Below, piece by piece: positions 21,996 through 63,221 of a stretch of DNA of 64,000 nucleotides. The stretch spans positions 1-64,000 of the forward strand of contig NW_007360612.1 in the NCBI RefSeq assembly GCF_000192795.1, given 5' to 3'. The notes below the pieces were generated by a model. It was not told the origin of the DNA. It was given only the letters and a program-made list of their open reading frames with translations, and did not search any database. Position 1 is the first letter of the stretch. Every line of letters starts with the position of its first letter. Made by a program: the position numbers and the translations under genes. Source of the DNA: Vavraia culicis subsp. floridensis. Taxonomy: Eukaryota; Microsporidia; Pleistophoridae.

Positions 21996-23793
21996 CCCGC
22001 AGGGGCAAGAGAATGAAAATTTTAAAGGATGTGCGATTTGTCATCAACACGCCAAAACAGCGAAATGCACATGCAACGAAGAATAGAAACACAATAAATG
22101 CTATTTATGTGCTATAGTACATTTTTAATGGAAATGGCATACGAAGAAATGGTTTGTTTATCGAATTGTTAGTGTCAACGATCATAAATTTATGTTATAA
22201 AGAAGAACGCTATAAGGCGATTCAAGGAGCGCAACCGGCTCAATCACCCATTTATGTGCACGCAAACAGAAATTGATCACATGCACGAGCAGCAACAGAT
22301 ACCTGTCGTGTGAGCAACGTATCGAATGAGCAAATTGTTCTGTACGTCAAGTCTATAATATCAAACCTATCATGTGCGAGTGATTGCAGCAGGTCAACCG
22401 CTAAACATACATATAATCGACACGTTCACCGATATTCGGGCACCGCCCAACGATAAACTATCACATGCCCACATCTCCTGTGCAGAGGTCACGCACCGTG
22501 GAGCATAACACTTTGCAGTGCCAAACACGGTACACATCTGATGCTAGCCAAGTTACGCAGACTCACGATAACAGACATACCACATGATGATAGAAAAAAT
22601 TTTCTAGTTGTTGCTGTTATTACGCTCTAACAGAAATGAAAATTGGACCGTAACCATCAATCGCAGCTTCCTTAATCCTTGATATGCACAGATACAGCAC
22701 CTGGTGATCTCGAAACAAAAGTGATTGTGAAGCATTTGTTGAGAGCTTGAAAGACAAGTGGCTAAAACTGTGCACAATAAAGGACTGCCACATGCCCAAC
22801 ACGCAAATAATGTACCACTTTTACACGGTATTATCGTGCACTTGACATGAAACGGCTATTGAACGGTTATAAACGTATTCCATTCGAAGCAGGAGTATAA
22901 AAGGAACAGAGCAGAAAGGCCCGATTGAAATAGTGTTTGACGTAACATATGACAGCGTTCACGATAAACATGTAATAACAGCAGATTTAGCGTGCATGTT
23001 ACGATTACCAGGTGCTTTGCTCTGTGTGATGCACAGCAGCATTACCAACACGTGCACCTTTTACAATTTCCGTTCATAATACCAACGGTACTTCATTTCA
23101 ATATTACACGCTAAATTGAAGCGCTGCTCCTTTCTATTCGCAGCTTACGTATTTTTTGCGTAATCGATTGGTGTTGTGTCTTCTTCTAAGCTGGTTGATT
23201 ACTCCGCAATGATTGTTCACATGATGATTAACCAAAATAGCTAAAAGTAGCACAAAATGCAGTGAACACCGATCAAGAATAAATGGCAGATTTGCTTGCT
23301 ATTTCATTCTCATTGAGCATGAATCGTGTTAAATTACGTGTAAGCAAAAGAAAATGGGGTAAATGCCTTAACTGAACCAAGTTTGGAGAAGTTAGCAAGG
23401 TACAGGAGCAAATTAAACTTACTTTATCACGGCAAAGTAGCCAATCTACCAATTTATGACAGAACAAGTAAATATTGCAAGTAATGGACCAATACGATTT
23501 ATTATAGGTTGAGACGGTGAGGCAGAGAATTTATGGTGGTGCAGATTAAAAACCACGGTTGTAAATCGAGTGATTGACGTGTTAAGCACAGTGCTATGCA
23601 CGACAAGATGCGTATCGCTTGATGTACGGGCACAAGATTACCTTTTCTGCTCATGTGAACTATTCCTGCTCAAATGCTTTGACAGCGATTGCATTATCGC
23701 CTATAACACGGTAACAATTCGTAAAAAATTGCAATGTCTCGCTCTTTTTTATTCCTACAGCAGTGCATAAAAATTATTTATGCGAGGCCTCGA
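21996..23793. other. Intergenic region between divergent PNUTS-like and NAR1 genes
   Basis: 1.8 kb holding both promoters. No ORF or RNA gene is supported; short open stretches at 22620-22802 and 23273-23467 look random. Confidence 0.5.
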
Positions 23794-25149
23794 ATGAATA
23801 AAAAGATAAATCCATGCATAAAAGGAGATAAGCCTTTTGAGCTCACGCTCAATGACTGCCTGGCATGCAGCGGCTGTCTGTCGATAGAAGAGAACAAAAT
23901 TACGTTGTCCGACCTGCAACACGTCCCTATCAACATGATAATGAGCCATTACAGCGTGTTGAACTTGTATAACGAGATGAAAAAGCAACGCTGTGAACAA
24001 AAAAACAATCTGCACGGTATAACAATCAAAGAGTGGTATGTGTGTTTACAGCGAGCACTGATGAAGACGTTCAACGTAAAACGATTCATAAACACGTATG
24101 ATTACCAGCAAATGAGCAATCACTTGGTGTATAACGAGTGGCTGGCCAGCAACAAACTTATACTAAGTGAATGTCCGGGTGTAGTAGCGTATATAGAACG
24201 AAGAAAACCAGAGTTGATACGGTATTTGAGTGAGGTACCATCTTTACAGCAAATATGTGCGTATTTGTGTGAGGAGGAAGGTGTTTTGACAGTAAGCGTG
24301 ATGCAGTGCTATGATAAGAGATTGGAGGGTGATGTGAGGATTGATTATGTACTGAGCAGCAGGGATGTGTACGAAGTGGTGAGAAGCATGGGTTTTGATG
24401 TGGGTGCGGATGAGCAGGAGAAGATGATCGGGGATGTATATGGAGGTGCGGGTGCGGATGAGCAGGAGAGGATGATCGGGGATGTATGTGTGGGTGCGGA
24501 TGAGCAGGAGAAGATGATCAGGGATGCATATGGAGGTGTCGATAGAAACACAGGATCAAGCGAAAGAGCGAATACAAATTTGGACAGAGAAGAGTACAAG
24601 AAGAACCGAAAGGTCGATGAAGATTGCACCATACACGCTGGTGATAGGTTCGAAGAAGTACATTCGAGCCACGCAATAGAATCGCTTCCTAGGAATGGAA
24701 TAGCAGACCATGATATAGAAACAAAAAATGATATAAGAGAGGTATTTACGGATGAAAAAGAATTCGTAACAAGTGTAACACCGTACATGATAAAAAAACT
24801 TAACCTGGAAATAGAAAGAATAGAACACATCAGCAAGTCGTACAGAGTACTTCACTTTAAGCACAGCAATTTGATGTTTGCGCACATCACAGGCCTTAAA
24901 AGCCTGCTAAACTTTCTGAACGAGAAGGAGATGCGCTACAATTTTGTTGATGTTTTTTTGTGCGATAATCGATGCTTCGGTGGACCTGGACAGATTGAGA
25001 ATAATGTTCAGGATGATTATCACGAATACTTTAACATGGTCAGCAACGATGTGACAAAAGAACCTGAAGTAGCACCGGTACTACAAGATAAGAAGAGGAA
25101 ATTTGAAAACAGAAAGGTCTATAAAAGCAATTTTCAGGTGGAATGGTGA
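23794..25149 (+). CDS. NAR1: Cytosolic Fe-S cluster assembly factor Nar1 (451 aa)
   Basis: The N-terminus carries Cys8 and the DCLACSGC motif (Cys22, 25 and 28), the four ligands of the N-terminal 4Fe-4S cluster of Nar1/IOP1. The hydrogenase-like core keeps its Cys landmarks: ECPGVVAYIER with PELIRYLSEV (compare CPGWVCYAEK), VMQCYDKRLEGD, and near the C-terminus LCDNRCFGGPGQI (compare CP-GC-NGGGQ). Nar1 works in the cytosolic Fe-S assembly (CIA) pathway. Between the core motifs sits an insert with three degenerate GADEQEKMIGDVYGG-type repeats and a long charged stretch. Start 23794 (MNKKINP) is preferred over the in-frame ATG at 23734 because Nar1 starts close to its first Cys. Length is near that of yeast Nar1. 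Confidence 0.88.
   Translation: MNKKINPCIKGDKPFELTLNDCLACSGCLSIEENKITLSDLQHVPINMIMSHYSVLNLYNEMKKQRCEQKNNLHGITIKEWYVCLQRALMKTFNVKRFINTYDYQQMSNHLVYNEWLASNKLILSECPGVVAYIERRKPELIRYLSEVPSLQQICAYLCEEEGVLTVSVMQCYDKRLEGDVRIDYVLSSRDVYEVVRSMGFDVGADEQEKMIGDVYGGAGADEQERMIGDVCVGADEQEKMIRDAYGGVDRNTGSSERANTNLDREEYKKNRKVDEDCTIHAGDRFEEVHSSHAIESLPRNGIADHDIETKNDIREVFTDEKEFVTSVTPYMIKKLNLEIERIEHISKSYRVLHFKHSNLMFAHITGLKSLLNFLNEKEMRYNFVDVFLCDNRCFGGPGQIENNVQDDYHEYFNMVSNDVTKEPEVAPVLQDKKRKFENRKVYKSNFQVEW
24393..24540. repeat. Degenerate in-frame repeat inside NAR1
   Basis: Three related units encoding GADEQEKMIGDVYGG-like segments, the third diverged. They lie between the VMQCYDKRLE and C-terminal Cys motifs, a surface-loop position where expansion should be tolerated. 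Confidence 0.75.
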
Positions 25150-25879: not shown

Positions 25880-28534
25880 TTAAATCGATTGCATATGCTG
25901 CTCTAGCTCGGTGGCAGACCCTGAAGCAACAACCATTCTCATTATTCTATCACACAGTTCTTCGCCAAGGCCTTTGTCCTTCAGTTTGTTGACCAGGTAT
26001 TTAATCCATAACACGTTGGTGAACGGGTTGAACTTGGACCACTCGTTGCAACATATCTTCTTCATCAGCCTGTAAACATCGTACTGCTCGTCGCCTGTGC
26101 CCTCAAACAGCTCTTTTTCGGGTGATAGGTCCTTGTACACAAGACCGTGATCGGTTGAAAGGCGCGAAAGCCCAAAATCTATTATACTCACTTTGAACGG
26201 TGCACTATCCTCAGTCACGAAGCGGCTGCTCAAATTAAAATTGCGCAGATTCTCGCTGAACGTACACAAACTGTCGTTCCGCATGCTGTTGTCCTGGATC
26301 AGGATATTACCCCAGTGGAGGTCCCGGTGTTCGAACTGGTACTTAAACTCAAGCACTGAGAGACACTCAATAATGATTTTGAGGAAGAACAGAATGTCGC
26401 TTATCTTCTTGAACTGGTAGTTCTCAAGATCAGTGCCTGCATCTTCCATCACTAAACAGCCGTAATCTTCACCTTTTCCACAACCACTCGGTCTCTTATT
26501 CTCCGATTTGTGCTTTTTGGCATACGCATCCCATGCGGTGTACAAATGCTGGTTGTACGCGCCCTTGCACAGGAAGAAATTCCGCATTTTTATCACGTAT
26601 TTCTCGTTCTGCAGTGTCTTAAGCACGTACACTTCCCTAAGAAACTCCTCCTTCGTGTAATATTCGGTGAACGGTATGATTTTGTAAATCTTGTCCTTGA
26701 ATTTGTACACATCAGAGAACGATGCCTCAGCGACCTTCTTTACGCCTTTTAGGTTCATCGTTGAAAAGTACCGCGTTTTTGGCTTGAGAATGCTCACCAG
26801 TTCAGCCTCTGAGAGCATCTGCTCAGCCACCTCCCTATTGCACGAAATGTTTTCGTCCGGAGGGCACTTATCGTTCGAACTCAACACGCTGCTGTCATCC
26901 TTAAATTCTATTTTGTATTTCTTTCTGTTCTTCTTTATGTTTATTTTCAGGGATTTCCTGCGCATCGGCTTGTTCTCCTTTAAGAATATTCCCTGTTTCT
27001 TGAAAATACGTGATCGTGTACCAAACAAGTCGCACGATACAGCACTGTTTTGGGCGGCGTTCACGTCTGTTACACGGTTCAAGGTCAACTTTCTGTTCAA
27101 GAACAGTTCTTCTCTTTTCAGATCGAGTAATTTGCTTTTGAGCGTGTTGTGCTCATCGTACTCGTTGACCGCGGCACACATTCCGTGTGATTTATCTTCA
27201 TTCCGCATGTCACGCTCATTCGCCACAGCACACACCCCGTGCGAGTCGCCACCAAGCAGCAACGACCGATCCGCCTCAGAGAGCAACATTTTGGCACCTT
27301 CCGATATTCTGAGCTTTCTCTTCAAATTTCTTGTATTTTCGATCCTTAGCACACTCTTGCCCACACATTCCTTGTCACCGTTTACACACTCTCTTACCGT
27401 TGATGCCACAACATCTCCACCGCTTACCTTTTCTCCAACTGTTGCATTGTCCAATTTCCTCACTGCGCTCAAACGCATCTTTTTGTTTTTATACACCTTG
27501 ACAGAACTGTCATCACTCCTGGCACCCCTTTTGAGACGTATGTTGATGACCTTGTTTGCATAAATGTTCGTGCCATGCATCGTGCTTTTTACAGTTTCAT
27601 GCACGTATTTGGTTTGTTTTATGCTTCGTTCGGCTGAGCATTGGCCTGATTTGAAGAAACTGGTGTTGCAGTTTTGATTGGTGATGCATCTAGCGTAAGA
27701 GCTGGTGCGGTGTTTTGTAACATTTTTGTTCACATGCACGGGAGTGCCATCTCCTCCATTCATTGAAATGCAATGCCTTCCCTCTACATCTGTGGAAGTG
27801 CTGCATTTTGCCCCCTCATTCATAGCAATGCAATGCCTTCCCTCTACATCTGTGGAAGTGCTGCATTTTGCCCCCTCATTCATAGCAATGCAATGCTTTT
27901 CCTCACTTTCAAAACTACCGCCGCAATTCACCCCAATTTGTCCAAAATCGCTGCCACGCGTAAATTTCAGTTTTCTAATGTCCCTCACGTCGCGATGCGA
28001 ATGCTCACACCCCATCTTGCCGCCCATAAACTCATTCCAATCAGAGTTTCTTTTCATGTCTTCTTCACGGCAAGGCTCCGCCTTATCCCTGTGTGCCAGA
28101 TCAGCAGAGCAGTCATCCGCATGATCATCGGCACCGATTCCACTATGCACAACCACGCTCTTCTCAAAACCGGCTGTTTCTTCGATGAGCTCGTCTGCAC
28201 TTTCGAGCACCACGCTCTTCTCAAAGCTCAACGAGTCAAAAAAGTCCCCATCCTTTCCCTTTTCACCCCTGAACTGTTTTTTAAAATGGTCATACGAGCA
28301 AAACACGCAATTATCTCCACTGCTCTCCTCATCATCCTCCCTTTCCTTATTATCACTTATAATGCTCAGCAACAGCTGCTGTATCCCCTCGCTGAACAGC
28401 GTGCTCTGTATGTACGACTTGTCCTTTTTCTTATGCTGGTAATCGGTCTTAATCTTCTCAAATAAACAGCTCGTGTTGTCAATTTTGTTGTGCACCATTT
28501 TTCTAATTTTGTCAAAAGAAGGGTATTTTTCCAT
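25880..28534 (-). CDS. Haspin-type protein kinase (884 aa)
   Basis: The C-terminal 300 residues are a haspin kinase domain. A degenerate glycine loop (EASFSDVYKF) is followed by the catalytic loop FEHRDLHWGNILI (HRD at 736-738), IIDFGLSRL (DFG at 786-788), a GDEQYDVYRLM segment and FNPFTNVLWIKYL. The HRDLHWGN and TNVLWxxYL signatures are specific to haspin, which phosphorylates histone H3 Thr3 in mitosis and recruits the chromosomal passenger complex. Haspins usually have DYT or DFT in place of DFG; this protein has DFG. The N-terminal ~580 residues are Ser/Asp/Lys-rich and contain a 20-residue tandem repeat. The ATG at 28534 opens the frame. Shadow frames on the plus strand are artefacts. 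Confidence 0.9.
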   Translation of the reverse strand: MEKYPSFDKIRKMVHNKIDNTSCLFEKIKTDYQHKKKDKSYIQSTLFSEGIQQLLLSIISDNKEREDDEESSGDNCVFCSYDHFKKQFRGEKGKDGDFFDSLSFEKSVVLESADELIEETAGFEKSVVVHSGIGADDHADDCSADLAHRDKAEPCREEDMKRNSDWNEFMGGKMGCEHSHRDVRDIRKLKFTRGSDFGQIGVNCGGSFESEEKHCIAMNEGAKCSTSTDVEGRHCIAMNEGAKCSTSTDVEGRHCISMNGGDGTPVHVNKNVTKHRTSSYARCITNQNCNTSFFKSGQCSAERSIKQTKYVHETVKSTMHGTNIYANKVINIRLKRGARSDDSSVKVYKNKKMRLSAVRKLDNATVGEKVSGGDVVASTVRECVNGDKECVGKSVLRIENTRNLKRKLRISEGAKMLLSEADRSLLLGGDSHGVCAVANERDMRNEDKSHGMCAAVNEYDEHNTLKSKLLDLKREELFLNRKLTLNRVTDVNAAQNSAVSCDLFGTRSRIFKKQGIFLKENKPMRRKSLKINIKKNRKKYKIEFKDDSSVLSSNDKCPPDENISCNREVAEQMLSEAELVSILKPKTRYFSTMNLKGVKKVAEASFSDVYKFKDKIYKIIPFTEYYTKEEFLREVYVLKTLQNEKYVIKMRNFFLCKGAYNQHLYTAWDAYAKKHKSENKRPSGCGKGEDYGCLVMEDAGTDLENYQFKKISDILFFLKIIIECLSVLEFKYQFEHRDLHWGNILIQDNSMRNDSLCTFSENLRNFNLSSRFVTEDSAPFKVSIIDFGLSRLSTDHGLVYKDLSPEKELFEGTGDEQYDVYRLMKKICCNEWSKFNPFTNVLWIKYLVNKLKDKGLGEELCDRIMRMVVASGSATELEQHMQSI
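27761..27900. repeat. 60-bp in-frame tandem repeat inside the haspin gene
   Basis: Two near-identical 60-bp units plus a partial third (core CAATGCCTTCCCTCTACATC on the plus strand at 27771 and 27831). They encode a 20-residue segment around RHCIAMNEGAKCSTSTDVEG in the disordered N-terminal half. Confidence 0.88.
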
Positions 28535-53325: not shown

Positions 53326-53724
53326 ATGAACCTACAGCAATTGATAACAGATCCTTTGCACGATTCTTCGAATGCTGCAGCCGTAGCAAAATTAGCAGCT
53401 GTCAACTCATGTCATAAGCCTATAGAAAATCAAAATGTGTTGCCTGTGCCTGCCATATCATCTCAGCCGATCAAGCACAAACGCTTTAAAAGTATGCCTT
53501 CTCCTGATCTCTCGGCATGTGCGGTTTTATCCGAAAACACCTGTCTAGATGGGCAATTCGCAAAACGTGCCACCGACCCTTCACACTGACATTCTGAGGA
53601 TTCATCATTCTCCGTTTCATCGCTCTCAGCGCACAAAGCATTTCTAGCAATCCGTGACAGCGTTTTGATCCCAAAATATTTTGAATTTTTAAGCCGGAAA
53701 ATAAAAGAGCCCTTTCAACAATGA
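53326..53724 (+). pseudogene. Possible gene interrupted by one in-frame TGA, abutting 14-3-3
   Basis: From the ATG at 53326 (MNLQQLITDPLHDSSNAA) 87 codons run to a TGA at 53587-53589. The same frame then stays open for 44 more codons with similar Ser-rich, protein-like composition (HSEDSSFSVSSLSAHK and on to LSRKIKEPFQQ) and ends in a TGA that overlaps the 14-3-3 ATG as ATGA. It could be a decayed gene, a stop read-through product, a sequencing error, or chance. The base after the TGA is C, which favours leaky termination in other eukaryotes. No family is recognised. Confidence 0.3.
53710..53712 (+). promoter_or_regulatory. CCC start-associated motif of 14-3-3
   Basis: CCC ends 8 nt before the ATG at 53721. 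It lies within the tail of the interrupted upstream ORF. Confidence 0.35.
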
Positions 53725-54488
53725 GAGACGATTTGAACCTTGACCAATTGATTCTACGCGCAAGCCTTAGCGAGCGTGCCGAGCGGTACGAGGACATGAT
53801 AAAAGACATGAAACGTGTGGTCAAGCTGCACTGGGAGGAAAAAATGGAGATAACACCCAAGGTACGCAACTACTTCTCGGTGGCATTCAAAAACCTGACA
53901 GGAACAAGACGAGCAGCGTGGCGCACGCTATGTATCGAGAAGGAGAAATACAAGGACACAAATTTAGACTACTATAACGTGATTGTAGACTATTTGGTGG
54001 AGGTGGAGAACGAGCTGAACACGATTTGCGACGATGTGATAGGTCATATAGACAAGCACATTCTTAAGGAAAATGAGACTGCACTTGATGTCGAATCGCA
54101 GGTATTCTTTTTGAAAATGAAGGGCGACTATTTCAGGTATAAGGCGGAGGTTGCCACCAGCCAAGACTTCTTGGCGTTCAAGACGGAGAGCAAGAACGCG
54201 TACGAAAAGGCAAGCGAGATTGCGAATGAGTTGGCACCGGTGAACTCGCTCAGACTTGGCCTGTGTCTTAATTATTCGGTGTTCTACTATGAAATTGAGA
54301 AGATGCCAGATAAGGCGTGCATGCTTGCCAAGCAGGCGTTCGACGACGCAATAAAAGATATTGATGTGTTGTCGGAAGAGCACTACAAGGACTCAACGCT
54401 CATCATGCAGTTGCTGAGAGACAACCTGTCTCTGTGGACGCATCGTGAGGAGAGCAACAAGGACTACATCGATGAAAGAGCTGATTAA
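53721..54488 (+). CDS. 14-3-3 protein (255 aa)
   Basis: A full-length 14-3-3 with nine-helix pattern. Landmarks: ASLSERAERYEDMIKDMK (helices 1-2), RNYFSVAFKNLTGTRRAAWR (the L-SVAYKN-x-x-G-x-RR-x-SWR signature, Lys in place), KMKGDYFRYKAEV (KMKGDYYRYLAE), LRLGLCLNYSVFYYEI (the P-x-R-LGL-x-LN-FSVF-YYEI signature) and LRDNLSLWT. The basic phosphopeptide-binding residues (Lys, Arg, Arg, Tyr) appear kept. 14-3-3 proteins are dimeric adaptors for phospho-Ser/Thr partners. Several residues of the RNLLSVAYKNVVG box are changed (YFSVAFKNLTG), so it is diverged but intact. It shares the window with three kinases. Confidence 0.96.
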   Translation: MRDDLNLDQLILRASLSERAERYEDMIKDMKRVVKLHWEEKMEITPKVRNYFSVAFKNLTGTRRAAWRTLCIEKEKYKDTNLDYYNVIVDYLVEVENELNTICDDVIGHIDKHILKENETALDVESQVFFLKMKGDYFRYKAEVATSQDFLAFKTESKNAYEKASEIANELAPVNSLRLGLCLNYSVFYYEIEKMPDKACMLAKQAFDDAIKDIDVLSEEHYKDSTLIMQLLRDNLSLWTHREESNKDYIDERAD

Positions 54489-56914: not shown

Positions 56915-59900
56915 ATGTTACCATTAATCGCCGTTGCACTGCACATACTCACTGTTTGCACGTCGTTGCTCACCATAACAAACACCTACCGCAAACAAAA
57001 CGCACTTGTGCCGCTCACGGAGCATCCCAGTCTTGCGCGTGCTGCCGTTCAGCAGGCAAACGCCATGTGTGCACGCAAGTCGCTCGTGCACAACAATTTG
57101 AGCGACAGGCTTGCGGCTGTTGATTTTGTGGGTACCAGGATAGGTGAAAATATTGCGAGATCGATTGAAAATGATGAGCAGAGAGTGTTTGAGGTGTGGT
57201 TGAAGAGCGACATGCACAAGGACAATATTGCGGGTGACTATGAGTTTGTGGGTGTGGGGAAATGTGTGGATGTGGATGGTTACTTTTATTATGTGGAGAT
57301 ATTTGGAAAGAGGGCGCGTGATGATGTCTGTAAGACGAGTCCTGCAGACAAGCTTTGCGAACAGCGTATCGAGAAGGATGTCTGTAAGACGAGTCCTGCA
57401 GACAAGCTTTGCGAACAGCGTATCGAGAAGGATGTCTGTAAGACGAGTCCTGCAGACAAGCTTTGCGAACAGCGTATTGAGAAGGATGTCTGTAAGACGA
57501 GTCCTGCAGACAAGCTTTGCGAACGGCGTGTCGAGAAGGGCAATGAGAAGATAAAAACGAAGAGAACGATAAGATTGATAATAGACAGGAACGCAAGGGA
57601 CAATACGCCTACAAAGGAAAACAATAGCGCAACTGCTACCGGGTACGGCATTAACTATGGCTACAACACCAATTCCATCTCTTATTCCGATTTCTTGGTG
57701 TATTACGATCAATTTCTTAAAAATTACCTGAGCAGTTTTCAGGCAAAGGACGATCGCACGGTGAACGAGATAAACGAAAAATTGAAAAGCATTGATGAAC
57801 AGTTGAGCAAGTTGCTTGGGAAAGCAGATGAAAAAGAGACGAAGAATAGCGCGGAGGGTAGGAGTGACAGCAGCCATATGGAACATGGCAATGGCAAAAA
57901 TATAATCAGCATTCATAACAGTAATGATAGCATGAGCTACAGTGGTGGTAACAACGATAGGAATAGGACCAATGATCGCGATAGCAAGGACAGCGGTGAC
58001 GAAAACAATGGTAGTAATGATGGGAACGGTGGTAGTAACCACGAAACCAGGCAGGGCAATGAAAGTAACAGCCAGGGCAGTAACAACGGCCAAAGCAATG
58101 AAAGTAACAGCCAAGGCAATGAAAGTAACAGCCAAGGCAATGAAAGTAACAGGCAGGGCAATGAAAGTAACAGCCAAAGCAATGAAAGTAATAACAGGGA
58201 CAGTAACGCTGTGAATGATGCAAGTACTGCAACCAAGGATAATAATTCTGGAAGTAGCGGGAATAGCGTCAAAGATAACACCGATAGTGGTAATGGCGGT
58301 AAAACCGTGGAAAGCGATCCTAGCAGCAGTATGAACAGCTCAGCTGCTGACAAACCAAAGAACAGTGTAAGAGTACCGATCGTGGTGAGTGATAAATCAA
58401 ACGAAAAACGCAGAAATGTTCTGTTGATCGATTTGAAAGATTTGCTTGAGAGTATAGGAAACATAAAGAACGTGGAAGATAGCGGAGCAGGTAATGGTAA
58501 AGAAAGTGGTGCGGAGGAAAAGAAGAAAAATGGTGAGAAAGAGACGGATGCCCAGCAAAATAAGGTGCATGGCAACAAGAATGGCAAAGCGGATGATGAC
58601 CCTCATAGCACGGACGCACGTGACGGTGCAAATGGCAGCAAAGCGGGTGATGGTGAGAGCACCGGAACGAATGACCAAAGAGGGAATGTTGATAAAAAGG
58701 ACGGCAGTAGCGGTAGGAAGAACGGAAAAGAGAACAAAAATGATAGCGAGGGGCAGAAAGCGGACAAAAAGGAGGGGACTGAAACTGCCGAGAACAACAG
58801 TGAAATTAACTTAGGTAGTGATGTAAAGAGCCTGGTAGAAATTCTTAAGCAGCTGAAGGAGGGCAAGAACCCAAAGGTGGAAAAGGGCAACACGAATGCA
58901 AATACCAGAGAAAAAAATACAACAGAACAGACCGACAACCAACAGGACATGAATGGCAACACGAATGCAAATACCAGAGAAAAAAATACAACAGAACAGA
59001 CCGACAACCAACAGGACATGAATGGCAACACGAATGCAAATACCAAAGAAAAAAATACAACAGAACAGACCGACAACCAACAGGACATGAATGGCGATTT
59101 ACGATTTGTCATAAAAATAGGAAACAATGGAATAGAAAACGAGAACGAAATAGGCGAACTGATAGATGTTCTGAAAAAAATCACAAAGAGCAAGAAGGAG
59201 AAAGATTCTGATACGGATAAGGAGAGTGACAGCCCGAATGATGCGAACAAAAACAAACCAAAAGACGAGGGGCAAAGTCAGGAGGATGGTAGCGATGAAG
59301 GAGGAAACGAGCTGATTTTGAAGGAGTTGGTGAGCTTGATCGGAAAGTTAGAACGTATAAGGACTGGTGAGAGTGCAAAAGACCTAAGAAAGGAGGAAGA
59401 GGGTGGTGATAAGAAGGAGATGGCAAATTGGGTGAAAGGTTTGAAAAGTATCATAGAAGGATACAAAGAGGAAAATAAAGATAACGCTGGCAACAAACAG
59501 GATAATCACAGCAATGAAACGGATGATAAGAAGACAGATGGGAATAAGAATGGTAAAAATGCCAAAGATAGCGATAAGGAGAAGGATAGCGATAAGGAGA
59601 AGGATAGCGATAAGGAGAAGGATAGCGATAATGGAAAAGATAACAGCCATGATACGGATAGCGAAAAAGATTCAAACGGTAATCGAACCAAGAACACTGA
59701 AAAAAATGACAAAAAAATCAGAACCAGAGATAATGGCAAAGACAGCGATCCTAGTGCAGAAAAAGATACTAGCGATAAAGACACTAAGAACGAAAGGAAC
59801 AGAAACAAAAAGAAGGATGGGGACGACAGCAATAATGAGGATAAAGATGATCGTAAAGACGGAAATGGCAGCGAAACTAAGGAGAGCGGCACTAACACCG

Positions 59901-60160
59901 GAAAGCGCAAACATGCAAATGTCGTCAGAGTACGAAGACGATACAACCCGTTCAACCTCAACCAAACAAAAATATCAACAAAGTTGGCCGAACTGTGCCG
60001 CTTACTCTCTGCATCCGATAACATGAACGGCTTAAATTACAAAAACGTGAGCAAACTCTGTATCGATAATGAAAATAGACTTGATGATGAGGTTTACGGT
60101 GATAGTGAACAAATAGAAATTGGTATACCACTGTATTACGGTGCACAATTAATCAATTGA
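56915..60160 (+). CDS. Secreted CAP/SCP-domain protein with long hydrophilic repeat tail (1081 aa)
   Basis: Residues 1-21 are a hydrophobic signal peptide (MLPLIAVALHILTVCTSLLT). Residues about 27-131 fit a CAP/SCP/PR-1 domain: ALVPLTEHPSLARAAVQQAN, LVHN (His59), GENIARSI (Glu78), VFEVWLKSDMHKDNI (His101) and FVGVGKCVDVDGYFYYVEIFG. The cavity His/Glu residues are kept. Then come four 18-residue DVCKTSPADKLCEQRIEK repeats (137-208), an Asn/Gly/Ser/Asp/Lys-rich region of about 750 residues with NESNSQG, NTNANTREKNTTEQTD and KEKDSD repeats, and a compact C-terminal segment (YNPFNLNQTKISTKLAELC to the end) that looks folded. CAP proteins are mostly extracellular and can bind sterols or lipids. 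It is probably secreted or in the spore wall; no GPI-type end is seen. Confidence 0.75.
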   Translation: MLPLIAVALHILTVCTSLLTITNTYRKQNALVPLTEHPSLARAAVQQANAMCARKSLVHNNLSDRLAAVDFVGTRIGENIARSIENDEQRVFEVWLKSDMHKDNIAGDYEFVGVGKCVDVDGYFYYVEIFGKRARDDVCKTSPADKLCEQRIEKDVCKTSPADKLCEQRIEKDVCKTSPADKLCEQRIEKDVCKTSPADKLCERRVEKGNEKIKTKRTIRLIIDRNARDNTPTKENNSATATGYGINYGYNTNSISYSDFLVYYDQFLKNYLSSFQAKDDRTVNEINEKLKSIDEQLSKLLGKADEKETKNSAEGRSDSSHMEHGNGKNIISIHNSNDSMSYSGGNNDRNRTNDRDSKDSGDENNGSNDGNGGSNHETRQGNESNSQGSNNGQSNESNSQGNESNSQGNESNRQGNESNSQSNESNNRDSNAVNDASTATKDNNSGSSGNSVKDNTDSGNGGKTVESDPSSSMNSSAADKPKNSVRVPIVVSDKSNEKRRNVLLIDLKDLLESIGNIKNVEDSGAGNGKESGAEEKKKNGEKETDAQQNKVHGNKNGKADDDPHSTDARDGANGSKAGDGESTGTNDQRGNVDKKDGSSGRKNGKENKNDSEGQKADKKEGTETAENNSEINLGSDVKSLVEILKQLKEGKNPKVEKGNTNANTREKNTTEQTDNQQDMNGNTNANTREKNTTEQTDNQQDMNGNTNANTKEKNTTEQTDNQQDMNGDLRFVIKIGNNGIENENEIGELIDVLKKITKSKKEKDSDTDKESDSPNDANKNKPKDEGQSQEDGSDEGGNELILKELVSLIGKLERIRTGESAKDLRKEEEGGDKKEMANWVKGLKSIIEGYKEENKDNAGNKQDNHSNETDDKKTDGNKNGKNAKDSDKEKDSDKEKDSDKEKDSDNGKDNSHDTDSEKDSNGNRTKNTEKNDKKIRTRDNGKDSDPSAEKDTSDKDTKNERNRNKKKDGDDSNNEDKDDRKDGNGSETKESGTNTGKRKHANVVRVRRRYNPFNLNQTKISTKLAELCRLLSASDNMNGLNYKNVSKLCIDNENRLDDEVYGDSEQIEIGIPLYYGAQLIN
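57323..57538. repeat. 54-bp coding repeat, 4 copies, in the CAP-protein gene
   Basis: Four near-identical 54-bp units (GATGTCTGTAAGACGAGTCC...) encode the 18-residue DVCKTSPADKLCEQRIEK. Each has two Cys, so the array could form a disulfide-linked stalk. The last unit changes EQRI to ERRV. Confidence 0.92.
58040..58200. repeat. Short NESNSQG-type coding repeats
   Basis: About seven degenerate copies of a 21-bp unit (GGCAATGAAAGTAACAGCCA...) encode NESNSQG-type heptads. Highly hydrophilic and probably disordered. Confidence 0.85.
58886..59092. repeat. 69-bp coding repeat, 3 copies, in the CAP-protein gene
   Basis: Units start at 58886, 58955 and 59024 and are nearly identical (GGCAACACGAATGCAAATAC...). 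They encode a 23-residue segment around NTNANTREKNTTEQTD. NTT gives a potential N-glycosylation sequon per unit, although microsporidia are thought to lack N-glycosylation. Confidence 0.92.
59562..59635. repeat. 18-bp KEKDSD coding repeat
   Basis: Four copies of GATAAGGAGAAGGATAGC encode KEKDSD hexads, an alternating-charge segment. Confidence 0.88.
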
Positions 60161-61379: not shown

Positions 61380-63221
61380 TCAGTTTTCTCGGCTGCCCAG
61401 CACTTCTTTCAGCCACACGACCACGGTATCAAAGAGCTCTCTGCTCCCATGCTTTTTCCTCACACACACGTAGTGCTTCTTTATCACCACGTTGAAATAA
61501 AATGCAAGGCTAAACTCTACGTACATCCCCTCCATCTTCAGCAAACAGCTGTAATTGTCCTCACCAATCATCGTTTTGATATGGTGCAGCTTAAAGAACC
61601 TGTGTATTGCTTTGCCAAGCCTGTCTGAATTGTTAACGTTGTTGCAGCTTATACCGGTGAAAATGCCTTTCAACAGCGTATTTTGCACTTTTACCTTTGG
61701 CTGGACAATGTCCGTCATGGGAACGAGGTTTAGACGCGGACAGTCGTTCTGCAAGACCACAATAAGCCTATGCAGAGTTTCCTTCCGGCTGCTGGTGGCC
61801 ACCGACCGCGATAATTCCTTGTTGGCAAAGTGGTTTTCCAACAAACGGTACATTTTGATGGTTGGACGAATGCACGAGAGCATCGAAACATCGTTAACAC
61901 ATGCCTGCATGTCCATCTCTGTGTTTTCGAAGGTCTTTCCGCCCACTTTGCGCAGAACATGAATGAACTCCGGGCTAAAGGAGTGTGGTACCCGTGTCTT
62001 GGCAGTCACGGACGTGACAGTAGGGTTTATGTATGGATGGCTGTGTGTATATTGAGAGTCGTTTTCGCTCTTCGCATCCTTCTTTACATCCCGATTGCTT
62101 TCATTCAGCCACTCGCTTTTGAGCACGTCCCTCATACGGTAACGCTTCCTTGCATCGTTCTCAATCAGTCCTCTGACCAATTTACGCGCGCTGCCGGACA
62201 CCTCTCTGTGAAACATAAATCGCCCTTTCTTTATCTTGCTGTGCAGCACGCCGACGTCCTTGTCATCAAAAGGCAGTGTTCCCACGACCATTACATAGAG
62301 AACCACGCCAAGTGACCACATATCAACCTCTGGGCCCGTGTACACTTTGCCCCTAAGCAGCTCGGGCGCAGCAAACTGCAGTGATCCACAAAACGTGCCC
62401 AGAAACTGCTTTGAGTCGTAGAAGTTGCTCAGCCCAAAGTCAATGATTTTGATATTTCCTCCTTTATCGATCAGAATGTTCTCAATTTTTAGATCGCGGT
62501 GGACAATTGCGTTAGAATGCATGAAATTCACGGCATCAACGATCTGCACGAAAAACTTCCTGGCGAGCGGCTCGTCAAGCACGCCGTTCTCACGAATGCA
62601 GCTGAGCAATGACTTGCCACTCACGTATTCATACACCATGTAGAAGTGTAGATCGTTGTAGAAGAATGCATGTAGCTTTATTATGTGTGGATGAGAGGCG
62701 AGAGCTGTTATTATAGCCTCCCTGTAGATACGCTCTTCGCGTTTGCACCTGCTTTCCTTGTTGACAGAGTTGTATCGCAGGTTTCTGGGTATGATTTTGA
62801 TGGCCACGTGCTGTCCCTCCTGTGATACAGCGAGTTTAACCTTTGAGAAACTGCCCTTTCCAAGCGTGCGCAGCAGCCTGTAGTTCTTGATACGCCGCTC
62901 GTTGAGCATCCTGTCCGCACACACGTAACCTCTCCTATGCGTCTCGTCTTGAGCCGCGCTGCTGTTCCATTCCAGGCTGGACATGCCACTCTTGCCACCC
63001 TTTCTCTGATCGATACCGTCAGATCCTTCGTTCCTCAGTTTAGAATCCATGGTCCGGCATCTTCCCGAACAGTACTCATCCACACACTCGCCCTTGTATC
63101 CGCTCAAACGCTGCTGCTCCGCGTCCTCATGCTCAGTGTCAAGCCCGTTCTCCGTCTTGAGATTTTCGCTGTTTGTATCGTCGTATATTTCGTCAAGACT
63201 TGACGACGAGTTCGTGTGCAT
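61380..63221 (-). CDS. KIN1/MARK (PAR-1)-like Ser/Thr kinase (613 aa)
   Basis: After a disordered acidic N-terminus (1-110) comes a CAMKL-type kinase domain: YRLLRTLGKGSFSKVKLA (glycine loop 121-128), VAIKIIPR (Lys142), VHRDLKIENILID (HRD 241-243), IIDFGLSNFY (DFG 261-263), CGSLQFAAPELL and VDMWSLGVVLYVMVVGTLPFDD. The C-terminal ~100 residues (from KGIFTGISCNN to the end, ending FDTVVVWLKEVLG) resemble a KA1 domain that binds acidic phospholipids. An insertion of Lys/Arg-rich residues (NKESRCKREER) lies in the N-lobe, as in fungal Kin1. Kin1-type kinases act in polarity and exocytosis. The frame opens at a TTG at 63224, but the first ATG is at 63221. Confidence 0.9.
   Translation of the reverse strand: MHTNSSSSLDEIYDDTNSENLKTENGLDTEHEDAEQQRLSGYKGECVDEYCSGRCRTMDSKLRNEGSDGIDQRKGGKSGMSSLEWNSSAAQDETHRRGYVCADRMLNERRIKNYRLLRTLGKGSFSKVKLAVSQEGQHVAIKIIPRNLRYNSVNKESRCKREERIYREAIITALASHPHIIKLHAFFYNDLHFYMVYEYVSGKSLLSCIRENGVLDEPLARKFFVQIVDAVNFMHSNAIVHRDLKIENILIDKGGNIKIIDFGLSNFYDSKQFLGTFCGSLQFAAPELLRGKVYTGPEVDMWSLGVVLYVMVVGTLPFDDKDVGVLHSKIKKGRFMFHREVSGSARKLVRGLIENDARKRYRMRDVLKSEWLNESNRDVKKDAKSENDSQYTHSHPYINPTVTSVTAKTRVPHSFSPEFIHVLRKVGGKTFENTEMDMQACVNDVSMLSCIRPTIKMYRLLENHFANKELSRSVATSSRKETLHRLIVVLQNDCPRLNLVPMTDIVQPKVKVQNTLLKGIFTGISCNNVNNSDRLGKAIHRFFKLHHIKTMIGEDNYSCLLKMEGMYVEFSLAFYFNVVIKKHYVCVRKKHGSRELFDTVVVWLKEVLGSREN

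What the first reader, a model, noticed from the sequence alone, without database searches (positions are those of the whole stretch)
56915..60160. Secreted CAP-domain protein with a Cys-paired repeat stalk and a giant charged tail
Seen: signal peptide, a CAP/SCP-like domain with its His/Glu residues, four 18-residue repeats with two Cys each, about 750 residues of Asn/Lys/Asp/Ser-rich repeats, and a compact conserved-looking C-terminus. Known: CAP proteins are extracellular in most eukaryotes and often serve host interaction or sterol binding. Inferred: this may be a surface, spore-wall or secreted host-interaction protein. The layout of CAP head, stalk, disordered brush and C-terminal anchor domain is not one I know as described, and the recent in-frame expansions suggest rapid evolution.
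Basis: partly seen in the sequence, partly recalled or inferred. Interest (0 to 1): 0.78.

Follow-up and report, generated by a model that had tools for sequence, protein, structure and literature searches.

The report
Microsporidian secreted CAP-domain protein
A gene in a microsporidian parasite encodes a probably secreted protein with a small CAP head and a very long, fast-changing, charged tail; the family was already described in 2013, so this is a real but largely ordinary new member.

Summary
ORF 56915-60160 (1081 codons) has a hydrophobic N-terminus, a CAP domain (Pfam PF00188, 34.2 bits, cut-off 21.1), four 54-bp repeats encoding 18 residues with two Cys, a long Asn/Lys/Asp/Ser-rich tail and a conserved C-terminal segment.

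Two corrections. First, the layout is in print: Nakjang et al. 2013 (PMC3879972, section 21 read) describe a one-copy-per-taxon microsporidian family of signal peptide, N-terminal CAP and disordered remainder, similar to bacterial, oomycete and Dictyostelium sequences, reported from T. hominis spores and rising with spore formation in two other species. The closest named homologue is a T. hominis 'putative CAP domain protein'. Second, the Cys 'stalk' is not conserved: the 18-mer occurs four times here, once in a near-identical relative and not in T. hominis.

An addition I did not find in my searches: the tail is not uniform. Six islands (19-56 residues) keep their order and are 173 of 213 identical to T. 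hominis, against 132 of 417 in the linkers.

Most likely role (inferred): a secreted spore-stage matrix protein. AlphaFold2 models were too weak to test the fold.

The parts
56915..56977 (+). putative signal peptide, residues 1-21
   Evidence: most hydrophobic stretch of the protein; 15 of 21 identical in T. hominis; cleavage site not predicted
56978..57322 (+). CAP domain, residues 22-136, with H59, E78, H101
   Evidence: Pfam PF00188 34.2 bits; invariant residues against 9 bacterial CAP stretches; 96 of 115 identical in T. hominis
57323..57538 (+). four 54-bp units, 18 residues with two Cys each; recent local expansion
   Evidence: 4, 1 and 0 copies in P0001, P0002, P0003
57539..57595 (+). 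conserved island 1, residues 209-227
   Evidence: 14 of 17 aligned residues identical in T. hominis
57653..57820 (+). conserved island 2, residues 247-302
   Evidence: 46 of 56 identical in T. hominis
58048..58191 (+). 21-bp in-frame array, 7 copies, in a linker
58352..58453 (+). conserved island 3, residues 480-513
   Evidence: 29 of 34 identical in T. hominis
58802..58864 (+). conserved island 4, residues 630-650
   Evidence: 15 of 21 identical in T. hominis
58886..59095 (+). 69-bp in-frame array, 3 copies, in a linker; one copy in P0002
59096..59185 (+). conserved island 5, residues 728-757
   Evidence: 26 of 30 identical in T. hominis
59306..59470 (+). conserved island 6, residues 798-852
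   Evidence: 43 of 55 identical in T. hominis
59567..59631 (+). 18-bp in-frame array, 3.6 copies, in a linker
59924..60157 (+). conserved C-terminal segment, residues 1004-1081, with C1028 and C1049
   Evidence: 59 of 78 identical in T. hominis, both Cys kept; single copy in the genome

Best explanation
It is the single CAP-family protein of a microsporidian close to Trachipleistophora hominis, a member of the family that Nakjang et al. described in 2013. Shown here: a CAP domain by sequence, with a residue pattern shared with bacterial CAP proteins; a hydrophobic leader; a long low-complexity tail that grows by in-frame tandem duplication; conserved islands in that tail; and a conserved C-terminal segment. 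Inferred: the leader sends it into the secretory pathway during spore formation. The CAP head sits outside the cell and binds a ligand or partner, perhaps with a cation, in the His/Glu cavity. The hydrophilic tail spreads through the spore wall or the space beneath it, and its conserved islands act as separate contact points joined by spacers of free length and sequence.
For: CAP. Homologues. Leader. One CAP match in the genome. Spore presence and timing are for orthologues and from a paper (section 21 read): T. hominis spore proteome, and transcripts of the E. cuniculi and N. parisii members that rise with spore formation. Islands against linkers: T. hominis identity 173 of 213 against 132 of 417; indel residues 3 per 215 against 248 per 580.
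Against: Nothing here shows location, expression or ligand. AlphaFold2 gave mean pLDDT 60 for the CAP domain, in a mostly helical model, and 29 for the whole protein, from 3 sequences, so the fold rests on sequence profiles. Island limits were chosen from the same T. hominis comparison that is then counted; with P0002, not used to draw them, substitutions are 2 of 215 against 18 of 507 (Fisher p = 0.050), although indels are 0 against 73 residues. In the T. hominis genome paper, which is cited for the spore proteome, I found no mention of a CAP domain in the main text (term search; section 13 read); its tables were not seen. Two further protein searches found no relatives.
Confidence: 0.62

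Rival explanations
1. It is a host-directed secreted factor: released from the parasite into the host cell or vacuole, where the CAP head or the fast-changing tail acts on host molecules.
For: Leader, fast linker turnover, and Nakjang et al. [quoted passage not shown]
Against: Reported timing of orthologues follows spore formation; the CAP head and islands are steady while only the linkers change fast. Timing does not exclude release by spores at infection.
Confidence: 0.25
2. It is a lipid or sterol carrier, like yeast Pry1, that takes up or shields host lipids; the tail is only a spacer.
For: CAP proteins such as Pry1 bind cholesterol (PMC4921858, abstract and passages); CAP domain present.
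Against: A profile of this CAP with 9 bacterial stretches matches the Pry1 chains at only 15-17 bits, against 96 bits for the best chain (the profile is nine-tenths bacterial). No sterol-site motif was tested here.
Confidence: 0.08
3. The tail has no function of its own: it is low-complexity filler grown by replication slippage, and the islands are conserved by chance or by short divergence time.
For: Four tandem arrays and in-frame indels; only three sequences, one of them nearly identical; p = 0.050 in the independent comparison.
Against: Identity to T. hominis is far more clustered than in 2000 shuffles (gaps counted as mismatches inflate this), and indels are nearly absent from islands.
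Confidence: 0.05

Closest known systems
Microsporidian CAP family of Nakjang et al. 2013 (PMC3879972, section 21 read), with the T. hominis 'putative CAP domain protein' P0003
   Same: N-terminal leader and CAP domain, long low-complexity remainder, one copy per genome; P0003 is 96 of 115 identical in the CAP domain and shares the six islands and the C-terminal segment
   Different: This member has four copies of a Cys-pair 18-mer that P0003 lacks, and three copies of a 69-bp unit. The paper's section 21 does not mention islands or a conserved C-terminus; it reports similarity outside the CAP domain only among close relatives
Bacterial YkwD-like CAP proteins (NCBIfam TIGR02909, spore_YkwD)
   Same: Best NCBIfam match, 41.1 bits over residues 17-130; shared N..R, H59, E78-N79, W95..S98..H101..N104 pattern with 9 bacterial stretches
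   Different: Far below that model's curated cut-off of 171 bits
Pry1 and other sterol-binding CAP proteins (PMC4921858, abstract and passages)
   Same: CAP superfamily; three of the four cavity residues can be placed
   Different: Weak profile match, 15-17 bits; sterol binding and its loop motif were not tested

Membership tests
CAP superfamily (Pfam PF00188) | match to the curated family model above its cut-off | tested here: met
   34.2 bits, cut-off 21.1, residues 21-128, profile 3-115 of 117; P0002 34.4 and P0003 45 bits
CAP superfamily (Pfam PF00188) | cavity tetrad of two His and two Glu (definition from PMC4921858) | tested here: inconclusive
   H59, E78 and H101 are invariant against 9 bacterial stretches; the second Glu is not fixed there: candidate E93 faces D in four and R, P, Q, K and N in one each
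CAP superfamily (Pfam PF00188) | alpha-beta-alpha sandwich fold | tested here: inconclusive
   AlphaFold2 with 3 sequences: pLDDT 60, pTM 0.44, mostly helical; no fold search was run on so weak a model
Microsporidian CAP family of Nakjang et al. 2013 | N-terminal signal peptide and CAP domain followed by a long disordered region | tested here: met
   definition. Leader judged by hydrophobicity and disorder by composition; no dedicated predictor of either was run
Microsporidian CAP family of Nakjang et al. 2013 | one copy per genome | tested here: met
   one PF00188 match in 5,626,998 bases, 80 contigs; completeness of the assembly is not known
Microsporidian CAP family of Nakjang et al. 2013 | present in spores or expressed with spore formation | not testable with these tools
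   reported for T. hominis, E. cuniculi and N. parisii members
NCBIfam TIGR02909 (spore_YkwD) | score above the curated cut-off | tested here: not met
   41.1 bits against 171
Sterol-binding CAP proteins (Pry1-like) | sterol binding through the caveolin-binding-motif loop | not tested
   no assay, model or motif search was made; role of the loop in Pry1

The most novel reading that the evidence does not exclude
The tail is a multivalent spacer-and-contact scaffold: six conserved short segments, strand-like or helix-like, held in fixed order between freely evolving charged spacers and closed by a Cys-containing end segment, so that one CAP protein ties together several parts of the spore wall or polar-tube apparatus while spacer length is free to change by tandem duplication.
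Probability: 0.28. Interest if true: 0.45.

Novelty: new member of a known kind. Interest (0 to 1): 0.24.

Why it matters
The 2013 paper called the family worth testing, and I found no later paper on it in the library (searches; most subscription journals are not held). The comparison with T. hominis separates parts under constraint (CAP head, six islands, C-terminus) from free spacers, and so says which pieces to express and localise first.

Tried and rejected
A conserved Cys 'stalk': rejected, since copy number is 4, 1 and 0 in the three homologues. T. hominis keeps two Cys in about the same place (C142, C148), so one Cys pair after the CAP may be older than the repeat. Caution: P0002 comes from an unnamed assembly (source 'lgn'), and assemblies can collapse repeats; its substitution next to the repeat argues for a real one-copy allele but does not prove it.

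Islands as copies of one ancient repeat: not supported. Of 28 pairs of segments, three had 25 or fewer of 500 shuffles at or above the observed score (18, 5 and 18), before any correction for 28 tests.

Paralogues in the same genome of the Cys repeat, of residues 212-304 (islands 1-2), of residues 728-853 (islands 5-6) and of the C-terminus: none convincing. The second matches were the opposite strand of the same repeat (E 0.0007), then E 0.52 and 0.11. Islands 3 and 4 were not searched on their own.

CAP relatives by back-translated patterns: 67 stretches in genome contigs and 30 in viral contigs, none confirmed. Microsporidian SSU rRNA (RF02542): no match in the genome, so the organism rests on the T. 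hominis homologue. G+C of the window (0.32-0.47 in 2-kb steps) and the 5.6-Mb assembly are near the values for Vavraia culicis (39.7%, 6.1 Mb; passages of PMC4435813); the species stays open. Nakjang et al. say one copy per taxon with V. culicis among their genomes, yet no V. culicis protein appeared; I cannot say why.

AlphaFold2 models were too weak for a fold search. A profile of A2, which carried whole tails, matched only low-complexity stretches of the helicase DHX8 among solved structures.

Full report
Observation. The ORF at 56915-60160 on the + strand has an ATG start and 1081 codons. The N-terminus is the most hydrophobic stretch of the protein. Residues 21-128 match Pfam CAP at 34.2 bits, over the curated cut-off of 21.1. 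Four 54-bp units lie at 57323-57539 with 97% matches, and three further arrays (21, 69 and 18 bp) lie downstream. Residues 209-1000 are rich in Asn (15%), Lys (13%), Asp (11%) and Ser (11%). The C-terminal 78 residues are 59 of 78 identical to T. hominis.

CAP beyond chance. Pfam is the independent test (P0002 34.4 and P0003 45 bits). A second test used nine bacterial stretches found by tblastn with this CAP domain: 9 of the 29 plasmid records matched. The best record, Nonomuraea, has E 3e-7, but three of the nine have E of 0.1, 1 and 2. Five of the nine are annotated as CAP domain proteins, one as an SH3 domain protein and one as a sigma factor, and two have no annotation. A profile of these nine scores this protein at 63.1 bits; the best of 5000 shuffles of the domain reaches 7.2, and no other window ORF of 60 aa or more ranks above that shuffle (326 ORFs, this one included). 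hhalign gives probability 99.0 over 113 columns. Because the nine were picked by their likeness to this protein, these two numbers overstate the case. Invariant in all ten sequences are N23, R26, A44, H59, E78, N79, A81, W95, S98, H101, N104 and G113. Three of the four cavity residues are thus placed; the second Glu is uncertain. A profile of the ten matches three solved chains at 96, 52 and 44 bits, GAPR-1 at 28 and 22, plant PR-1 at 20 and 18 and Pry1 at 17 and 15. That the top three are bacterial is recalled, as the listing does not name organisms, and the profile is nine-tenths bacterial.

Homologues. The search with residues 1-230 found two proteins among 2991 candidates: P0002 (954 aa, source 'lgn', no name) and P0003 (970 aa, T. 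hominis, 'putative CAP domain protein'). Two narrower searches gave none (E limit 0.01, E limit 10). The CAP domain has 0 of 115 differences from P0002 and 19 of 115 from P0003. The Cys 18-mer is present four times here, once in P0002 and not in P0003, which has two Cys of different spacing there. The 69-bp unit is present three times here and once in P0002. The 'stalk' is therefore a recent local expansion.

Tail. Identity to T. hominis is strongly clustered. Six islands (residues 209-227, 247-302, 480-513, 630-650, 728-757, 798-852) are 173 of 213 identical, with 3 indel residues per 215. The linkers between them, the Cys repeat left out, are 132 of 417 identical, with 248 indel residues per 580. 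In 2000 shuffles of the match pattern over residues 209-1000, the variance of 21-residue windows never passed 0.019, against 0.068 observed; windows at 80% identity or more number 74 against at most 10. Two cautions: gaps were counted as mismatches and come in runs, which inflates the contrast, and the island limits were drawn from this same comparison. With P0002, which had no part in drawing them, substitutions are 2 of 215 in islands and 18 of 507 in linkers (Fisher p = 0.050), and indels are 0 against 73 residues. Most helices and strands that the full-length AlphaFold2 model shows between residues 209 and 1003 lie in islands 2-6, but the model has pLDDT below 50 throughout and is only a hint. 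The islands are not clearly copies of one unit.

Genome. The genome (5,626,998 bases, 80 contigs) has one CAP match. The Cys repeat, islands 1-2, islands 5-6 and the C-terminus have no convincing second place. Neighbouring genes include a protein kinase (61380-63221, minus strand) and, further upstream, a 14-3-3 protein (53721-54488); neither bears on the function.

What is known. Nakjang et al. 2013 (PMC3879972: section 21 read; passages; [quoted passage not shown] They report members in purified T. hominis spores, and transcripts in E. cuniculi and N. parisii that rise with spore formation, and they suggest a role with host cells. The T. hominis genome paper (PMC3486916: passages; section 13 read) does not name a CAP domain in the main text; its tables were not seen. 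In PMC4654818 and PMC4435813 a term search found no 'CAP domain' (passages only). My searches for later work on the family returned no other paper on it, judged by listing.

Mechanism. Shown: CAP domain by sequence, hydrophobic leader, single CAP locus, repeat turnover, conserved islands. From the paper, for orthologues: spore presence and timing. Inferred: secretion in sporogony, ligand or cation binding by the CAP head, and a tail that makes several contacts through its islands. A host-directed factor is the main rival; it is disfavoured by the reported timing and the steadiness of the CAP head, but not excluded.

Verdict. Real, mostly well read in its parts, and already described as a family. 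The useful additions are the correction of the stalk, the map of conserved islands and the bacterial-type residue pattern.

Noticed in passing
window 25880-28534 (-): An 884-codon ORF carries near-identical short repeats in its first half, another sign of in-frame repeat growth in this genome; its C-terminal part reads like a protein kinase (by eye only).
   Followed up: no
window 23734-25149 (+): A 471-codon ORF that looks NAR1/hydrogenase-like by eye also holds a degenerate tandem repeat.
   Followed up: no
window 56924-58177 (-): A 417-codon ORF runs opposite the repeat-rich part of the gene; I take it to be a by-product of the sense-strand composition, untested.
   Followed up: no
whole genome G000: The Rfam microsporidian SSU rRNA model (RF02542) finds no match in the 80 contigs, although it does in 9 of 14 prokaryote controls; rRNA genes may be missing from the assembly or withheld.
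   Followed up: no
window 57323-57538: Two or more Cys right after the CAP domain occur in all three homologues, with different spacing in T. hominis, so one Cys pair may be the ancestral element that was later multiplied.
   Followed up: partly
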